Below are positions 5,396-64,000 of a DNA stretch of 64,000 bases, in pieces (positions within the stretch are counted from its first letter, which is position 1; every line of letters begins with the position of its first letter). Position numbers and translations under genes: made by a program. Location: positions 373,462 to 437,461 of the forward strand of contig NZ_JAMXHT010000005.1 in assembly GCF_023955655.1 (NCBI RefSeq), given 5' to 3'. Source of the DNA: Ralstonia soli. GTDB lineage: Bacteria; Pseudomonadota; Gammaproteobacteria; Burkholderiales; Burkholderiaceae. The notes under the pieces were generated by a model that saw only the letters and a list, made by a program, of their open reading frames with translations, was not told the origin of the DNA and searched no databases.

Positions 5396-6280
5396 ATGAC
5401 TGTATTCGCTATCCCGTTCCCAGCGCTGCTATCGCAGTTGATGCTGGGGCTCGTCAATGGCGCGTTCTACGCGATGCTGAGCTTGGGGCTGGCCGTGATC
5501 TTCGGCCTGCTCAATGTCATCAACTTCGCACACGGTGCGCTGTTCATGCTGGGCGCGCTGCTGGCCTGGGCCGGCATGGAGTACGCGGGCCTCAACTACT
5601 GGGTGATGCTGGCGCTGTCGCCGCTGATGGTGGCGGTGCTCGGTGTGGTCATCGAGAAGACGATGCTGCGCTGGATCTACAAGCTCGACCACATCTACGG
5701 TTTGCTGCTGACGCTGGGCATTACGCTGGTAATTGAAGGGGTGTTTCGCTCGGTCTATGGCGTGTCGGGTCTGCCGTACTCGCCGCCGGAAGCCCTTCAG
5801 GGGGCGGCCGATTTCGGCTTCATGCGCTTGCCCAACTATCGCATCTGGGTGGTGGCGGTATCGCTCGGCGTGTGCTTTGCCACGTGGTACGTCATCGAGA
5901 AGACCAAACTCGGCGCCTATCTGCGCGCTGGGACGGAGAACCCGAAAGTTGTCGAGGCGTTCGGCATCAACGTGCCACTGATGGTGACGCTCACCTACGG
6001 CTTTGGCGTGGCGCTGGCCGCCTTCGCGGGCGTGCTGGCGGCACCGGTCATGCAGGTCTCGCCGCTGATGGGGCAGAACCTGATCATCGTCGTGTTTGCC
6101 GTGGTGGTGATCGGCGGCATGGGGTCGATTACCGGCTCGATCTTCACCGGGCTCGCGCTCGGCGTGATCGAGGGGCTGACCAAGGTGTTCTATCCGGAGG
6201 CATCGTCGACCGTGGTGTTCGTCATCATGGTGATCGTGCTGCTACTGCGCCCGGCAGGGCTGTTCGGCAAGGAGAAGTGA
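5396..6280 (+). CDS. ABC transporter permease, LivH type
   Basis: A 294-residue inner-membrane permease with the LivH hallmarks: an N-terminal LVNGAFYAMLSLGLAVIFGL helix, then NVINFAHGALFMLGA, and a late GMGSITGSIFTGLALGV segment that contacts the ATPase. About eight hydrophobic helices are visible. The start at ATG 5396 leaves 10 bases after the LivF stop; upstream in-frame codons overlap LivF and are rejected. It overlaps the next permease by one base (TGATG), so the two are translationally coupled. Confidence 0.93.
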   Translation: MTVFAIPFPALLSQLMLGLVNGAFYAMLSLGLAVIFGLLNVINFAHGALFMLGALLAWAGMEYAGLNYWVMLALSPLMVAVLGVVIEKTMLRWIYKLDHIYGLLLTLGITLVIEGVFRSVYGVSGLPYSPPEALQGAADFGFMRLPNYRIWVVAVSLGVCFATWYVIEKTKLGAYLRAGTENPKVVEAFGINVPLMVTLTYGFGVALAAFAGVLAAPVMQVSPLMGQNLIIVVFAVVVIGGMGSITGSIFTGLALGVIEGLTKVFYPEASSTVVFVIMVIVLLLRPAGLFGKEK

Positions 6281-7299
6281 TGAACGGACAATCAATCGCT
6301 GTCACCAAGGTGCAGCAAGGCCCACTGAGCCGGAGCCTGTCGAAACGCGCCGTGGCCGGCCTGGTGCTGCTGGGCCTGCTGGCTGCGCCGGCACTGGGCG
6401 CCTACCCCGTTTTCATATTGAAGGTGCTGTGCTTCGCGCTGTTTGCGTGCGCCTTCAACCTGTTGATCGGCTACGCGGGCCTGCTGTCGTTCGGGCATGC
6501 GGCGTTCTTCGGCGGCGCCGGTTATGTTGCCGGCGAGGCCATGAAGGTCTGGGGTGTCACGCCGGAGGTCGGGCTCGTCATCGGTACGGCCAGCGGCGCG
6601 CTGCTCGGTTACGTGATGGGCGCGCTGGCCATCCGGCGGCAGGGCATCTACTTCTCGATGATCACGCTCGCGCTGGCGCAGATGCTCTACTTCTTCTGCC
6701 TGCAGGCGCCGTTCACGGGCGGCGAGGATGGCCTGCAGGGCATTCCGCGCGGCAGCCTGTTCGGCGTGTTGCCGCTGGATGCAGATACCACGCTGTACTA
6801 CGTGGCGCTGGTCGTCATCGTGGCGGCATTCGCGCTGATTGTGCGGATCGTGCATTCTCCGTTCGGGCAGATCCTCAAGGCGATCAAGGAGAACGAGCCG
6901 CGCGCCATCTCCCTGGGCTATGACGTCGACCGCTTCAAGCTGATGGCGTTCGTGCTATCGGCGGCGCTGGCGGGGCTGGCCGGTTCGCTCAAGGCGCTGG
7001 TGCTGGGGTTCGAGACGCTGTCCGATGTGCACTGGTCGCTGTCGGGCATGGTCATCCTGATGACCCTCGTGGGTGGACTGGGCACGCTGTCCGGCCCCAT
7101 CGTCGGTGCGCTGGTGGTGGTGGCGCTCGAGAACAAGCTCGGCGATCTGGGCAGCTACCTGAATGCCGTCACCGGCATCGAATGGTTCAACGTGCTGGGT
7201 GAATCCGTGCCGATGGTGATGGGGGCGATCTTCATCCTGTGCGTGCTGCTGTTCCGCAAGGGGATCGTCGGGCAGTTCGGCCGCCGACCTGAGCGATAG
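6280..7299 (+). CDS. ABC transporter permease, LivM type
   Basis: A 339-residue inner-membrane permease of the HAAT importer. The hydrophobic part begins near residue 22 and includes the family segment NLLIGYAGLLSFGHAAFFGG and a KAIKENEPRAISLGYD cytoplasmic loop, the usual ATPase-contact region. The ATG overlaps the LivH stop. It is the last gene of the operon; a perfect 10-bp hairpin follows at 7320-7346 in the gap shared with the convergent MFS gene. Confidence 0.93.
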   Translation: MNGQSIAVTKVQQGPLSRSLSKRAVAGLVLLGLLAAPALGAYPVFILKVLCFALFACAFNLLIGYAGLLSFGHAAFFGGAGYVAGEAMKVWGVTPEVGLVIGTASGALLGYVMGALAIRRQGIYFSMITLALAQMLYFFCLQAPFTGGEDGLQGIPRGSLFGVLPLDADTTLYYVALVVIVAAFALIVRIVHSPFGQILKAIKENEPRAISLGYDVDRFKLMAFVLSAALAGLAGSLKALVLGFETLSDVHWSLSGMVILMTLVGGLGTLSGPIVGALVVVALENKLGDLGSYLNAVTGIEWFNVLGESVPMVMGAIFILCVLLFRKGIVGQFGRRPER

Positions 7300-59840: not shown

Positions 59841-60071
59841 CCGCTCAACGCGGGCATCACACACCGGCACGCGCACCACGTGCCGACGTCTTCCGTTTGG
59901 CCGCAGCAGCATTTGCTGTGCCGCACCATACCGAACCGAACCTGCACCGAAACCGTGCGGCGCAGCGCCCATGCTTGAGGCACGTTGCGGGTGCGTGGGC
60001 GTCGCTTTGCACGGCAAACCGCGATAGATCAAGGCTTTGCGGCCTTGGCATACCTGTTGCGTAGCACCAGT

Positions 60072-60147
60072 GCGCGAGTCAACGGCGATTCGCGCTCTTC
60101 GTGGTGACGGCCCTGGTGCTCAGGGCTCTTGGACAACGGCGTCCCAG
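60072..60147 (+). promoter_or_regulatory. ANTAR-type two-hairpin antitermination leader
   Basis: Hairpin P1 (60072-60095) has stem GCGCGAGTC/GATTCGCGC around the hexaloop AACGGC. Hairpin P2 (60128-60147, core GGAC/GTCC at 60131-60144) has the same hexaloop AACGGC. Both loops keep the A1 and G4 positions that ANTAR proteins (NasR, NasT, AmiR type) require. P2 uses bases that also form the 5' arm of the terminator at 60138, so binding would prevent termination. A third hairpin, GCCCTG/CAGGGC, lies in the linker. An ANTAR protein gene is not in the window. Confidence 0.75.
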
Positions 60148-60190
60148 AACCTGGCCTAGTGCCCGGTTCTCGGACGCCTTTCTTTTTTTT
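60138..60190 (+). terminator. Leader terminator (attenuator) before the nitrate operon
   Basis: GGCGTCC-c-AGAACC (60138-60151) pairs with GGTTCT-c-GGACGCC (60165-60178), 13 bp interrupted by one C-C mismatch, with a 13-base loop, followed by TTTCTTTTTTTT. It ends only 16 bases before the transporter ATG, so without antitermination the operon should be off. Confidence 0.88.
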
Positions 60191-60206
60191 GGAAGCGGGA
60201 CTCGAC

Positions 60207-61529
60207 ATGAACGGCAAAGCCACCCGAATCGACTTGTTCAGCCTGCGCACGCCGCAGATGCGCGCCTTCCACCTGACGTGGCTGGCGTTCTTTGTGTGCT
60301 TTTATGCGTGGTTCGCCTGCGCGCCGCTCATGCCGGTGCTCAAGGGCGAGTTCCACCTCACGCCAGGGCAGATCGCCAACATCAACATCGCTGCGGTGGC
60401 GGTGACGATCCTGGTGCGGCTGCTGGTCGGCCCGCTGTGCGACCGCTTCGGTCCGCGCAAGACGTACACCGGCCTGCTGGTGTTGGGTGCCATTCCTGTG
60501 CTGGGGGTGGCGCTGGCGCAGAGCTATGAGGCGTTCCTCTTCTTCCGCCTGGCGATTGGCGCGATTGGCGCGAGCTTCGTCATCACGCAGTACCACACGT
60601 CGGTCATGTTCGCGCCCAACGTAGTCGGTACGGCCAACGCAGCGGCCGCCGGCTGGGGTAACGCGGGCGGTGGCGTAGCGCAAGGCACGATGCCGCTGCT
60701 GCTGACCGCCATTGTGATGATGGGCGTGACGCAGAGCCTGGGGTGGCGCCTGGCCATGGTGGTGCCGGGTGTGGCGATGTTGATCGTCGCGGCGCTCTAC
60801 TGGCGCTATACGCAGGACTGCCCGGAAGGCAACTACGCAGAACTGCGCGCCGCCGGCAAGACCATCGAAGGCGGCAAGAAAGGCGGCTGGGGCAGCTTTG
60901 TGGCCGCGGCCGGCAACTACCGCGTGTGGCTGCTGTTCATCACCTACGGCGCGTGCTTTGGCGTGGAGATCTTCATCCACAACATCGCAGCCACGTATTA
61001 CGTTGATCACTTCGGCCTGTCGCTGTCCGCGGCCGGCATGGCTGCGGCGAGCTTCGGCCTGTTGGCGCTGTTTGCGCGTGCGCTGGGCGGCATCGTGTCG
61101 GACCGCGTGGCGGCCAAGCGCGGGTTGGACGCCCGTACTCAACTGCTGTGCGTGCTGATGCTGGGCGAGGGCCTGGGCCTGTTCGGTTTTGCCCATGCCG
61201 GCAGCGTGACGGTGGCGGTGGTGGCCATGCTCGGTTTCGGCCTGTTCACCCACATGGCTTGCGGCGCCACGTATGCGCTGGTGCCCTTCATTGATCGCCG
61301 CGCGCTGGGCGGTGTGGCCGGCATCATCGGCGCGGGCGGCAACGCTGGTGCGGTGGCTGCGGGTTTCCTGCTCAAGGGCATGGCCGATACGCAGGCCACG
61401 CTGTCCATCCTCGGCGTGCTGGTGGCGCTGTCGGCCGTCTGCGCCATCGCGGTGCGCTTCTCGGCAGAACACAAGGCGCGTGAACAAGCGCTGTACGACA
61501 ACACGCTGGCCGCTGCCGGCGGCGCCTGA
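60207..61529 (+). CDS. narK: Nitrate/nitrite transporter, MFS NarK/NasA type
   Basis: A 440-residue MFS permease of the nitrate/nitrite porter family. The NNP signature is seen as AAAAGWGNAGGGVAQGTMP (residues about 147-166) and GIIGAGGNAGAVAAGFLL later. The start at ATG 60207 follows GGAAGCGGG; the upstream in-frame region is the terminator. It is the first gene of the nirB operon and is controlled by the ANTAR-type leader, so assimilatory nitrate uptake is the probable role. Confidence 0.92.
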   Translation: MNGKATRIDLFSLRTPQMRAFHLTWLAFFVCFYAWFACAPLMPVLKGEFHLTPGQIANINIAAVAVTILVRLLVGPLCDRFGPRKTYTGLLVLGAIPVLGVALAQSYEAFLFFRLAIGAIGASFVITQYHTSVMFAPNVVGTANAAAAGWGNAGGGVAQGTMPLLLTAIVMMGVTQSLGWRLAMVVPGVAMLIVAALYWRYTQDCPEGNYAELRAAGKTIEGGKKGGWGSFVAAAGNYRVWLLFITYGACFGVEIFIHNIAATYYVDHFGLSLSAAGMAAASFGLLALFARALGGIVSDRVAAKRGLDARTQLLCVLMLGEGLGLFGFAHAGSVTVAVVAMLGFGLFTHMACGATYALVPFIDRRALGGVAGIIGAGGNAGAVAAGFLLKGMADTQATLSILGVLVALSAVCAIAVRFSAEHKAREQALYDNTLAAAGGA

Positions 61530-61542
61530 GGAGAACATCACC

Positions 61543-64000
61543 ATGACCATGAAGATCGTCGTCATCGGCCACGGAATGGTGGGCCACAAGTTTCTGGAAA
61601 GCCTGCTGCATGCGCCGGGCCATCACCTGCAAGTGACGGTGCTGTGCGAAGAGCCGCGCCCCGCGTACGACCGCGTGCACCTGTCGGAATTCTTCACGGG
61701 CAAGACGGCGGAAGACCTCTCGCTCGTTACGCCAGGTTTCTTCGACCGTGACGACGTGGTGCTCAAGCTCAATGCCCGCGCCACTGCCATCGACACCACC
61801 GCCAAGACGGTGACGGCCTCCACCGGGGAGGTGCTGCCGTACGACAAGCTCGTGATCGCCTCCGGCTCGTCGCCCTTTGTGCCGCCCGTGCCGGGCAAGG
61901 ACCGCAAGGACTGCTTCGTCTACCGCACCATCGAAGACCTGGAGGCGATGGCCGAATGCGGCCAGCGCGCCAAGACCGGCGTGGTGATCGGCGGCGGCCT
62001 GCTGGGCCTGGAGTGCGCCAAGGCCCTGCGCGATATGCACCTGCAAACGCACGTGGTTGAATTTGCCGGCCGTCTGATGGCGATGCAGGTGGACGACGGC
62101 GGCGGCCGCATGCTGCGCCGGAAGATCGAAGACCTGGGCGTGACGGTGCACACGCAAAAGAACACGGTGGAGATCGTCGATGGGGTGGACGGTACCCACC
62201 GCCTGAACTTTGCCGACGGCACGCATCTGGATGCTGACATGGTCGTCTTCTCCGCCGGCATCCGCCCGCGTGATGAGCTGGCGCGTGCCTGCGGCCTGCA
62301 AGTGGGCGAGCGCGGCGGCATCGTGATCGACTCCGAATGCCGCACCTCTGCGCCGGACGTGTACGCCATTGGCGAGTGCGCACTATGGGGCGGCAAGGTG
62401 TACGGCCTAGTGGCGCCCGGCTACGAAATGGCGCGCATCACCGCCAAGCAGATCCTGGCCGACGACGACGCTACCGAGTTCAGCGGTGCCGACATGAGCA
62501 CCAAGCTCAAGCTGATGGGCGTGGACGTTGCCAGCCTGGGCGATGCGCAAGGCACCACGCCGGGCAGCCGCAGCGTGCAGTTCACCGATGAGCGCAAGCA
62601 GATCTACAAGAAGCTGGTGGTGTCGGAAGACGGCAAGTACCTGCTGGGCGGCGTGCTGGTGGGCGATGCGGCTGAATACGGCACGCTGCTGCAGATGATG
62701 CTCAACCGCATCGAACTGCCCGAGGCGCCGGAATTCCTGATCCTGCCGCAGGCCGATGGCAATGCGCGCCCAGCGCTGGGTGTGGATGCGCTGCCCGACA
62801 GCGCACAGATCTGCTCGTGCAACGATGTGTCGAAGGGCGCGTTGTGCCAGGCCGTGTGCGCCGGTGCCACCGCCGTGGGTGCGTTGAAGGATGCAACGAA
62901 GGCCGGCACCTCGTGCGGCGGCTGCGTGCCGCTCATGACGCAGGTGATGAAGGCCGAGATGAAGAAGCAGGGCCTGGCCGTCAACAACCACCTCTGCGAA
63001 CACTTCCCGTATTCGCGTCAGGAGCTGTATCACCTGGTGCGCGTGGGCCGTATCCAGTCATTCGACGCGCTGCTGCAAGCGCATGGCCACGGCATGGGTT
63101 GCGACATCTGCAAGCCGGTGGTGGCAAGCATCCTCGCTTCGTGCTGGAACGACTTCGTGCTCAAGAAAGAGCACGCCAGCCTGCAGGATTCCAACGACTA
63201 CTTCCTTGCCAACATCCAGAAGGACGGCACGTATTCGGTCGTGCCGCGCATGCCGGGCGGCGAGGTGACGGCGGACGGCCTGATTGCCGTCGGCCAGGTC
63301 GCCAAGAAGTACGGCCTGTACACCAAGATCACCGGCGGCCAGCGCGTGGACCTGTTTGGCGCCCGCCTGGAGCAACTGCCGCTGATCTGGGAAGAGCTGA
63401 TCGCGGCAGGCTTTGAGTCGGGCCACGCGTATGGCAAGTCGCTGCGTACGGTGAAGTCGTGCGTGGGCTCCACGTGGTGCCGTTATGGCGTGGGTGATTC
63501 GGTAGGCTTTGCGATTGCGCTGGAGAACCGCTACAAGGGCCTGCGCTCGCCGCACAAGCTGAAGTTTGGCGTGTCGGGCTGCACGCGCGAATGCGCGGAA
63601 GCGCAAGGCAAGGATGTTGGCATCATCGCCACGGAGAAGGGCTGGAACCTGTACGTGTGCGGCAACGGCGGCATGAAACCCCGCCATGCCGAACTGCTGG
63701 CTGCGGACCTCGACCAGGACACGCTCATCAAGTACGTCGACCGCTTCCTGATGTTCTACGTGCGCACCGCCGACCGCCTGCAACGCACCAGCACGTGGCG
63801 CGACAACCTCGAAGGCGGCCTCGACTACCTGAAGGACGTGGTCATCAACGACAAGCTGGGCATCGTGGCTGAACTGGAAGCCGAGATGCAGCACGTGGTC
63901 GATACCTACCAGGACGAGTGGAAGACCGCCGTGACCAACCCCGAGGTGCGCAAGCGTTTCCGCCACTTCGTGAACAGCGACGCGAAGGACGCCAACGTCG
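61543..64000 (+). CDS. nirB: Assimilatory nitrite reductase [NAD(P)H] large subunit (3' end missing)
   Basis: The reading frame is open to the end of the window (819 codons). FAD-binding residues about 7-21 (VIGHGMVGHKF) start a pyridine nucleotide-disulfide oxidoreductase domain; a BFD-type [2Fe-2S] segment begins near residue 424 (CSCNDVSKGALCQAVC); the siroheme/[4Fe-4S] domain supplies C640, C646, C680 and C684. ATG 61543 follows GAGGAGA, 13 bases after the transporter stop. It reduces nitrite to ammonia. Only about the last 20-40 residues are cut off. Confidence 0.95.
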   Translation, partial: MTMKIVVIGHGMVGHKFLESLLHAPGHHLQVTVLCEEPRPAYDRVHLSEFFTGKTAEDLSLVTPGFFDRDDVVLKLNARATAIDTTAKTVTASTGEVLPYDKLVIASGSSPFVPPVPGKDRKDCFVYRTIEDLEAMAECGQRAKTGVVIGGGLLGLECAKALRDMHLQTHVVEFAGRLMAMQVDDGGGRMLRRKIEDLGVTVHTQKNTVEIVDGVDGTHRLNFADGTHLDADMVVFSAGIRPRDELARACGLQVGERGGIVIDSECRTSAPDVYAIGECALWGGKVYGLVAPGYEMARITAKQILADDDATEFSGADMSTKLKLMGVDVASLGDAQGTTPGSRSVQFTDERKQIYKKLVVSEDGKYLLGGVLVGDAAEYGTLLQMMLNRIELPEAPEFLILPQADGNARPALGVDALPDSAQICSCNDVSKGALCQAVCAGATAVGALKDATKAGTSCGGCVPLMTQVMKAEMKKQGLAVNNHLCEHFPYSRQELYHLVRVGRIQSFDALLQAHGHGMGCDICKPVVASILASCWNDFVLKKEHASLQDSNDYFLANIQKDGTYSVVPRMPGGEVTADGLIAVGQVAKKYGLYTKITGGQRVDLFGARLEQLPLIWEELIAAGFESGHAYGKSLRTVKSCVGSTWCRYGVGDSVGFAIALENRYKGLRSPHKLKFGVSGCTRECAEAQGKDVGIIATEKGWNLYVCGNGGMKPRHAELLAADLDQDTLIKYVDRFLMFYVRTADRLQRTSTWRDNLEGGLDYLKDVVINDKLGIVAELEAEMQHVVDTYQDEWKTAVTNPEVRKRFRHFVNSDAKDANV

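What the first reader, a model, noticed from the sequence alone, without database searches (positions are those of the whole stretch)
60072..60206. ANTAR-type antitermination leader upstream of the nitrate operon
Two hairpins carry the identical hexaloop AACGGC (A1, G4) and the second overlaps the 5' arm of a strong intrinsic terminator ending 16 bases before narK. This matches the established mechanism in which NasR/NasT-like ANTAR proteins bind two hexaloops and stop termination. The spacing between hairpins (about 35 bases) is longer than in the best-known leaders and contains a third hairpin, so this may be a variant arrangement. It predicts nitrate-dependent control after initiation, with the ANTAR gene elsewhere in the genome.
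Basis: partly seen in the sequence, partly recalled or inferred. Interest (0 to 1): 0.82.

Follow-up and report, generated by a model that had tools for sequence, protein, structure and literature searches.

The report
Nitrate-gene RNA switch, three hairpins
The stretch before a nitrate-uptake gene looks like an RNA switch of a known type, in which transcription runs on only when a partner protein grips two matching hairpin loops; here the two loops lie unusually far apart with another conserved hairpin between them.

Summary
Window 60072-60190 has every sequence feature of an ANTAR (NasT-type) antitermination leader behind a sigma54 promoter: a 5' hexaloop hairpin (P1), a middle hairpin, and a second hexaloop hairpin (P2) with the same loop, whose 3' arm is the terminator's 5' arm; the U-tract ends 16 nt before narK. 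It is present in 16 of 16 sampled genomes of the genus (Ralstonia by a named relative). The genome has one ANTAR protein, NasT-like, beside an nrtA whose own leader has a 1-nt linker. In an order-wide sample, 22 of 22 leader-bearing genomes carry an ANTAR gene (baseline 73 of 150). The 35-nt linker (35-67 nt in 56 of 69 parsed narK leaders) holds a hairpin with compensatory changes in another genus of the family. Rfam P11 (Pseudomonas) already has this layout, listed as an sRNA gene. Other Burkholderiales leaders have a third A1/G4 hexaloop there. For the ANTAR protein EutV, a 14-nt linker drastically cuts induction and 20 added nt abolish antitermination in vitro, so how NasT bridges the loops is open. 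No NasS was found. Binding, nitrate response and the middle hairpin's role are inferred. New member of a known kind.

The parts
59943..59958 (+). Candidate NtrC enhancer site TGCAC-N7-GTGC (motif recalled)
   Evidence: Exact match; the pattern is not enriched in the window (36 found, 50.7 expected at up to 1 mismatch). GCAC-N7-GTGC is kept in the 9 of 16 genus loci aligned.
60046..60060 (+). sigma54 promoter TGGCAT-N5-TTGC; -12 GC at 60059-60060, predicted +1 about 60072
   Evidence: Only exact match to TGGCAYNNNNNTTGC in 64 kb; TGGCA-N6-TTGC in all 16 genus leaders. Start site inferred from recalled sigma54 spacing.
60072..60095 (+). P1: 9-bp hairpin, hexaloop AACGGC (A1, G4), C-G closing pair
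   Evidence: 97.7% of cells paired in the genus
60109..60127 (+). Middle hairpin Pm, GCCCUG-GUGCU-CAGGGC plus outer G-U; not a hexaloop
   Evidence: the 6 core pairs form in all 15 distinct genus rows; compensatory changes in the equivalent hairpin of another genus
60131..60144 (+). P2: hairpin GGAC-AACGGC-GUCC, antiterminator
   Evidence: only match to GWCAANGGCGWC in the window, 0.24 expected
60138..60190 (+). Intrinsic terminator, 5' arm shared with P2, U-tract 60179-60190
60207..61529 (+). narK, nitrate/nitrite MFS transporter
   Evidence: MFS_1; best NCBIfam is TIGR00886 NarK, 299.9 bits, below its cut-off of 311.7
61543..64000 (+). nirB, running beyond the window; in L003 it is followed by a 118-aa ORF of nirD size and by FAD-reductase-like and nitrate-reductase-like ORFs (labels by reading, not by a family search)
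   Evidence: TIGR02374 1152.5 bits; ORFs

Best explanation
It is a NasT-type ANTAR antitermination leader of the narK-nirB nitrate assimilation operon, of the P11-like form with a structured linker. (1) sigma54 polymerase, probably NtrC-activated under nitrogen limitation, starts at the foot of P1 [sites shown as sequence; activation inferred]. (2) P1 folds as the 5' end of the RNA [fold predicted; timing inferred]. (3) The middle hairpin folds, then the P2 region is made. (4) Without active NasT the terminator forms and narK is not transcribed [structure predicted; outcome inferred]. (5) NasT is recruited to the P1 loop and then holds the P2 loop with the same sequence, keeping the terminator's 5' arm in P2 so that polymerase passes the U-tract [inferred from ANTAR systems]. 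The middle hairpin most likely shortens and organises the path between P1 and P2, or slows polymerase just before P2; its place is tied to P2 more than to P1 [inferred].
For: Two A1/G4 hexaloops with C-G closing pairs, the second overlapping a terminator. Present in 16 of 16 genus genomes. One ANTAR protein per genome in 16 of 16, matching ANTAR structures 1s8n, 6wsh (EutV) and 4akk (NasR). Of the EutV RNA-contact residues named, R142, K143, E160 and M172 are identical in the alignment (2-residue offset, read by eye). The same sigma54-P1-P2-terminator plan lies before nrtA in 14 of 16 nasT loci. Leader-bearing genomes are ANTAR-positive in 22 of 22 cases against 73 of 150 (hypergeometric 2e-8, kinship not corrected). 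Sub-threshold matches to Rfam P11 and narK RNA, families that match leaders of this plan in 5 of 20 other loci. Middle hairpin: 25 of 44 linker clusters against 13.9 expected, narK clusters 9 of 12 against 3.2; own arms -14.9 against mixed arms -9.1 kcal/mol in 7 leaders of another genus.
Against: No binding, termination or expression data. The 35-nt linker exceeds what EutV is known to tolerate: natural 5-12 nt, 14 nt drastically reduced induction in vivo, 20 added nt abolished antitermination in vitro (passages of PMC3369931, and PMC8934654). Other EutV contact residues differ here: K147 to R, Y164 to F, N173 to D, R175 to N, R177 to K (by eye; NasR also differs). In Bradyrhizobium a narK leader with predicted NasT hairpins was expressed more, not less, without nasT (passage of PMC6759348). 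No NasS in the genome. Genus covariation is uninformative: 0 pairs changed on both sides. 19 of 44 long-linker clusters, 3 of 12 narK ones, lack a qualifying middle hairpin, and arm-mixing shows little in two of the three groups tested.
Confidence: 0.87

Rival explanations
1. The middle hairpin is the decayed relic of a third ANTAR hexaloop hairpin, now without a role; NasT simply tolerates long linkers.
For: Nineteen parsed leaders have three or more A1/G4 hairpins, the one before P2 lying 1-12 nt from it. Some two-loop leaders show near-misses in that slot: L281, L283 and L284 with a mismatched stem, L273 with a 5-nt loop (text, read by eye).
Against: Compensatory changes in another genus suggest selection on the stem. 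No tree was built, so loss and gain are not told apart.
Confidence: 0.25
2. The middle hairpin is an RNA polymerase pause signal that gives NasT time to load on P1 before P2 and the terminator emerge.
For: In the 9 narK clusters that have it, it ends 2-5 nt before P2 while its distance from P1 varies from 13 to 34 nt; in several lineages pyrimidines follow it.
Against: The stretch after it is not U-rich in the nasB-like group. No pausing data.
Confidence: 0.25
3. A plain attenuator or terminator with chance hexaloops, not controlled by an ANTAR protein.
For: No functional data; EutV linker limits are exceeded.
Against: Conservation of both loops, the single ANTAR gene, co-occurrence, and the second leader beside nasT.
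Confidence: 0.05
4. A free small RNA (as Rfam lists P11) rather than a leader.
For: Terminated transcripts would appear as short RNAs; RF00625 is typed as a gene.
Against: A gene starts 16 nt after the U-tract and the P2/terminator overlap is conserved in the genus.
Confidence: 0.05

Closest known systems
Rfam RF00625 P11 (Pseudomonas; typed as a gene/sRNA)
   Same: sigma54-like start, A1/G4 hexaloop hairpin, a middle hairpin (CCCG...CGGG) ending 4 nt before GGACAAAGGCGUCC, then a terminator sharing the P2 arm
   Different: Linker 19 nt in L130 against 35; the window scores 23.3 bits against a gathering score of 70
Rfam RF03032 narK RNA
   Same: sigma54-like promoter, hexaloop hairpin and P2-like sequence; the window scores 25.8 bits
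   Different: Linker of 7-8 nt in the four best matches and no middle hairpin; the window is below the 43.2-bit cut-off
NasT-NasS controlled leaders (Paracoccus nasA, Bradyrhizobium nosR, Pseudomonas nirBD)
   Same: NasT-type protein, leader hairpins, nitrogen-oxide genes. In Paracoccus, hairpins HI and HII lie 137 and 91 bp before nasA and a chromosomal HI mutant lost growth on nitrate (passages of PMC5424462)
   Different: No NasS found here. The Pseudomonas paper (Romeo 2012) was seen only in reference lists and citations
EutV-eut leaders
   Same: Two A1/G4 hexaloops, P2 exclusive with the terminator
   Different: Natural linkers of 5-12 nt with strict length dependence
NasR-nasF leader (Klebsiella)
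   Same: Nitrate genes; tandem hexaloops, A and G at positions 1 and 4, terminal C:G pair (passages of PMC7496416)
   Different: NasR carries a NIT nitrate sensor domain; no NIT domain was found in the protein here

Membership tests
ANTAR dual-hexaloop antitermination leader | Two stem-loops with 6-nt loops, A1 and G4 | tested here: met
   kept in all 16 genus leaders
ANTAR dual-hexaloop antitermination leader | Second hairpin overlaps an intrinsic terminator | tested here: met
ANTAR dual-hexaloop antitermination leader | ANTAR protein encoded in the genome | tested here: met
   One; one each in 16 of 16 genus genomes
ANTAR dual-hexaloop antitermination leader | Linker within reported ranges (5-12 nt in E. 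faecalis eut; 2-25 nt used for curation in actinobacteria) | tested here: not met
   35 nt. These ranges come from other lineages; the motif definition itself states a variable linker, so this lowers confidence in the mechanism rather than excluding membership
ANTAR dual-hexaloop antitermination leader | Protein binding and readthrough | not testable with these tools
   Needs bench work
NasT-NasS system | NasT: receiver-like domain plus ANTAR, no NIT | tested here: met
   PF03861 72.8 bits; Response_reg 19.8 bits, below its cut-off of 30.2
NasT-NasS system | NasS, a nitrate-sensing partner without export signal | tested here: not met
   A NasS-like query (L374) has one match at E <= 0.001, the NrtA beside nasT, which has a Tat-like signal by eye. 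Of 14 NMT1_2 matches in the genome only the two best were looked at; the second has a secretion signal by eye
Rfam P11 (RF00625) | Score at or above gathering | tested here: not met
   23.3 against 70 bits
Rfam narK RNA (RF03032) | Score at or above gathering | tested here: not met
   25.8 against 43.2 bits

The most novel reading that the evidence does not exclude
NasT leaders in Burkholderiales and Pseudomonas form a modular class in which the slot just before P2 holds a third ANTAR hexaloop hairpin, a non-binding structured hairpin, or nothing, with P1 fixed at the RNA's 5' end by the sigma54 start. In the window's form the middle hairpin is an active part of the switch that lets NasT pass from P1 to P2 across 35-67 nt, a distance at which EutV fails, and NasT works without NasS.
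Probability: 0.3. Interest if true: 0.62.

Novelty: new member of a known kind. Interest (0 to 1): 0.42.

Why it matters
ANTAR leaders are understood best from EutV, where the distance between the loops is critical. Here one genome has two leaders for its one ANTAR protein, one with 1 nt and one with 35 nt between hairpins, so if both are NasT targets the same protein must cope with both. That makes the spatial rule and the stepwise-handover model of ANTAR action testable on matched natural RNAs. It also suggests that two Rfam families (P11 and narK RNA) are NasT leaders whose models include promoter sequence, which would improve annotation of nitrate control.

Tried and rejected
Rfam scan of the whole window at gathering scores found nothing; a relaxed local scan gave narK RNA and P11, plus two chance-like matches. 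An extended P1 with an outer GCACC/GGUG stem, in the MFE, was set aside because the predicted transcription start lies inside it. Genus covariation was uninformative. Order-wide gap patterns returned many matches that look like coding sequence; only loci passing the parser were counted, and some plausible ones fell out of it (L040, L192, L247, L270, L286, L287, L294, L295, L313-L315, and genus members L006 and L018). The class-wide three-loop pattern matched 12 of 369 genomes, of which by eye about four look like leaders (L320, L326, L328, L329, not followed up; the match in the window's own genome looks like coding sequence). Arm-mixing in the nasB-like group and in one other genus showed little difference (own -20.6 against mixed -18.9; -11.4 against -10.5). 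One search was a useless two-row alignment. Paper searches for P11 and narK RNA listed mostly unrelated papers. No paper describing an intervening or third hairpin in an ANTAR leader was seen in the listings (open library only; several listings were capped at 10-20 rows), and the term searches in PMC3369931 and PMC8934654 found no such passage. No structure prediction was run.

Full report
What is there. The finding is real at the stated place. From 5' to 3': a candidate NtrC site (59943-59958), the only exact sigma54 promoter match in the window (60046-60060), P1 with loop AACGGC (60072-60095), a 35-nt linker holding a middle hairpin (60109-60127), P2 with the same loop (60131-60144), a terminator that shares P2's 3' arm (60138-60178) with a U-tract to 60190, and narK at 60207. 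With recalled sigma54 spacing the transcript starts at about 60072, the first base of P1. Folding from 60074 gives P1, the middle hairpin and the terminator (z -2.96).

Conservation. The stretch matches in 16 of 16 genomes of the genus, the window's own included, and all 16 leaders keep both loops A1/G4, P2 and a middle hairpin. The genus appears to be Ralstonia: the named record L054 (Ralstonia sp. ASV6) has the same leader and a 96% identical NarK. Within the genus there is too little variation for covariation (0 pairs changed on both sides; observed values no better than shuffles).

The protein. The genome has one ANTAR domain, as has each of the 16. It belongs to a 192-residue receiver-like plus ANTAR protein similar to 1s8n, EutV 6wsh and NasR 4akk, that is, NasT-like. 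It lies on another contig, upstream of nrtA (NMT1_2) and of ORFs that I read as nrtB and nrtC (no family search). Before nrtA is a second leader of the same sigma54-P1-P2-terminator plan with a 1-nt linker when stems are extended fully. The plan was found in 14 of 16 nasT loci of the genus; L339 holds only 2076 bases and L344 gave no match. Of the EutV RNA contacts named in PMC8934654, four are identical and five differ (by eye).

Relatives. A model of the genus leader matched in 66 of 200 genomes of the family, 16 of them the genus itself. By form and downstream gene (tblastn with seven to eight window or genome proteins): three or more hexaloops 19 (11 nrtA, 8 narK); linker over 25 nt 101 (56 narK, 19 nrtA, 12 nasB-like, 5 nirB, 9 none found); 15-25 nt 11 (9 nrtA, 1 nasB-like, 1 none); up to 14 nt 21 (11 nrtA, 5 narK, 2 nasB-like, 3 none). 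Shuffled loci gave 0-1 parser calls against 163.

Co-occurrence. In a 150-genome sample of the order, 73 have an ANTAR domain. Of the genomes with parser-accepted leaders that I could place in that sample by handle (G000, G024 and G200-G337), 22 of 22 are ANTAR-positive (hypergeometric 2e-8). Kinship is not corrected for, the placing was done by reading, and not every ANTAR protein counted need be a NasT.

The middle hairpin. In 103 leaders with linkers of 24 nt or more, clustered to 44, 25 have a stem of at least 4 bp with 3 G-C ending within 6 nt of P2, against 13.9 expected from shuffles (P 8e-5); for clusters with narK downstream 9 of 12 against 3.2 (P 1.4e-4). Nineteen of 44 have none by that rule, some because their hairpin is bulged (for example L042). 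In another genus of the family (7 leaders; two further model matches, L040 and L192, were not parsed) the hairpin's own arms pair at -14.9 kcal/mol and mixed arms at -9.1, with compensatory changes such as CC/GG against TT/AA. In two other groups the same test shows little. In the narK clusters the gap from middle hairpin to P2 is 2-5 nt while the gap from P1 is 13-34 nt. Rfam's P11 consensus has a hairpin in the same slot, and four P11 matches among the fetched loci all show it (L130 and L067 are named Pseudomonas, the names of L140 and L146 were not displayed). So the layout is wider than this family and already on record, though not, as far as the searches here show, as part of an ANTAR leader.

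Three-hexaloop leaders. In 19 parsed leaders a further A1/G4 hexaloop hairpin stands before P2, 1-12 nt from it. Fifteen of the 19 are from other families of the order, one (L244) from the window's family, and three (L138, L144, L171) from records whose names were not displayed. Whether the window's middle hairpin descends from such a hairpin is a hypothesis; no tree was made.

How it works. By analogy with EutV, NasR and NasT (passages read, not whole papers: PMC3369931; PMC8934654; PMC7496416; PMC5424462; PMC3795266; PMC8164766; PMC7261876), NasT bound to P1 and then P2 should block the terminator. The EutV rule on linker length is the main point against a simple transfer, and it is what makes the case useful. 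A second caution is Bradyrhizobium, where expression of a narK leader gene with predicted hairpins rose in a nasT mutant (PMC6759348). A third is the missing NasS: a NasS-like protein from another family finds only NrtA in this genome.

Known or new. It works like, and by sequence features belongs with, ANTAR leaders of the NasT group. It fails the formal score of the two nearest Rfam families. Those families gave 9 matches in 5 of 20 other loci; of these the five narK RNA matches and one of four P11 matches coincide with parsed leaders, and the other three P11 matches show the same plan by eye. I file it as a new member of a known kind; the structured long linker is the part worth testing.

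Noticed in passing
L002 about 6200-6365, minus strand: Second NasT-type leader before nrtA with a 1-nt linker, loops AACGUG and AACGGC, in the same genome.
   Followed up: yes
G000 whole genome; L374: No NasS found; nasT neighbours an NrtA with a Tat-like signal here and in many Burkholderiales nasT loci (by eye), while L374 (another family) has a signal-less NasS-like gene beside nasT.
   Followed up: partly
L130, L140, L067, L146, L302: Rfam P11 and narK RNA match leaders of the NasT plan, and both models start with what looks like sigma54 promoter sequence, which would not be transcribed.
   Followed up: partly
L138, L144, L171, L244, L254-L257, L263, L268, L272, L274, L275, L277-L280, L282, L285: Leaders with three or more A1/G4 hexaloop hairpins before nrtA or narK.
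   Followed up: partly
L095, L141, L170, L214: Additional parsed leaders, with promoters such as TGGCCTGGATATTGC (L095, L170), before a gene not identified with my queries.
   Followed up: no
L002 about 6380-6900: Imperfect short repeats fill the stretch between nasT and the nrtA leader (by eye).
   Followed up: no
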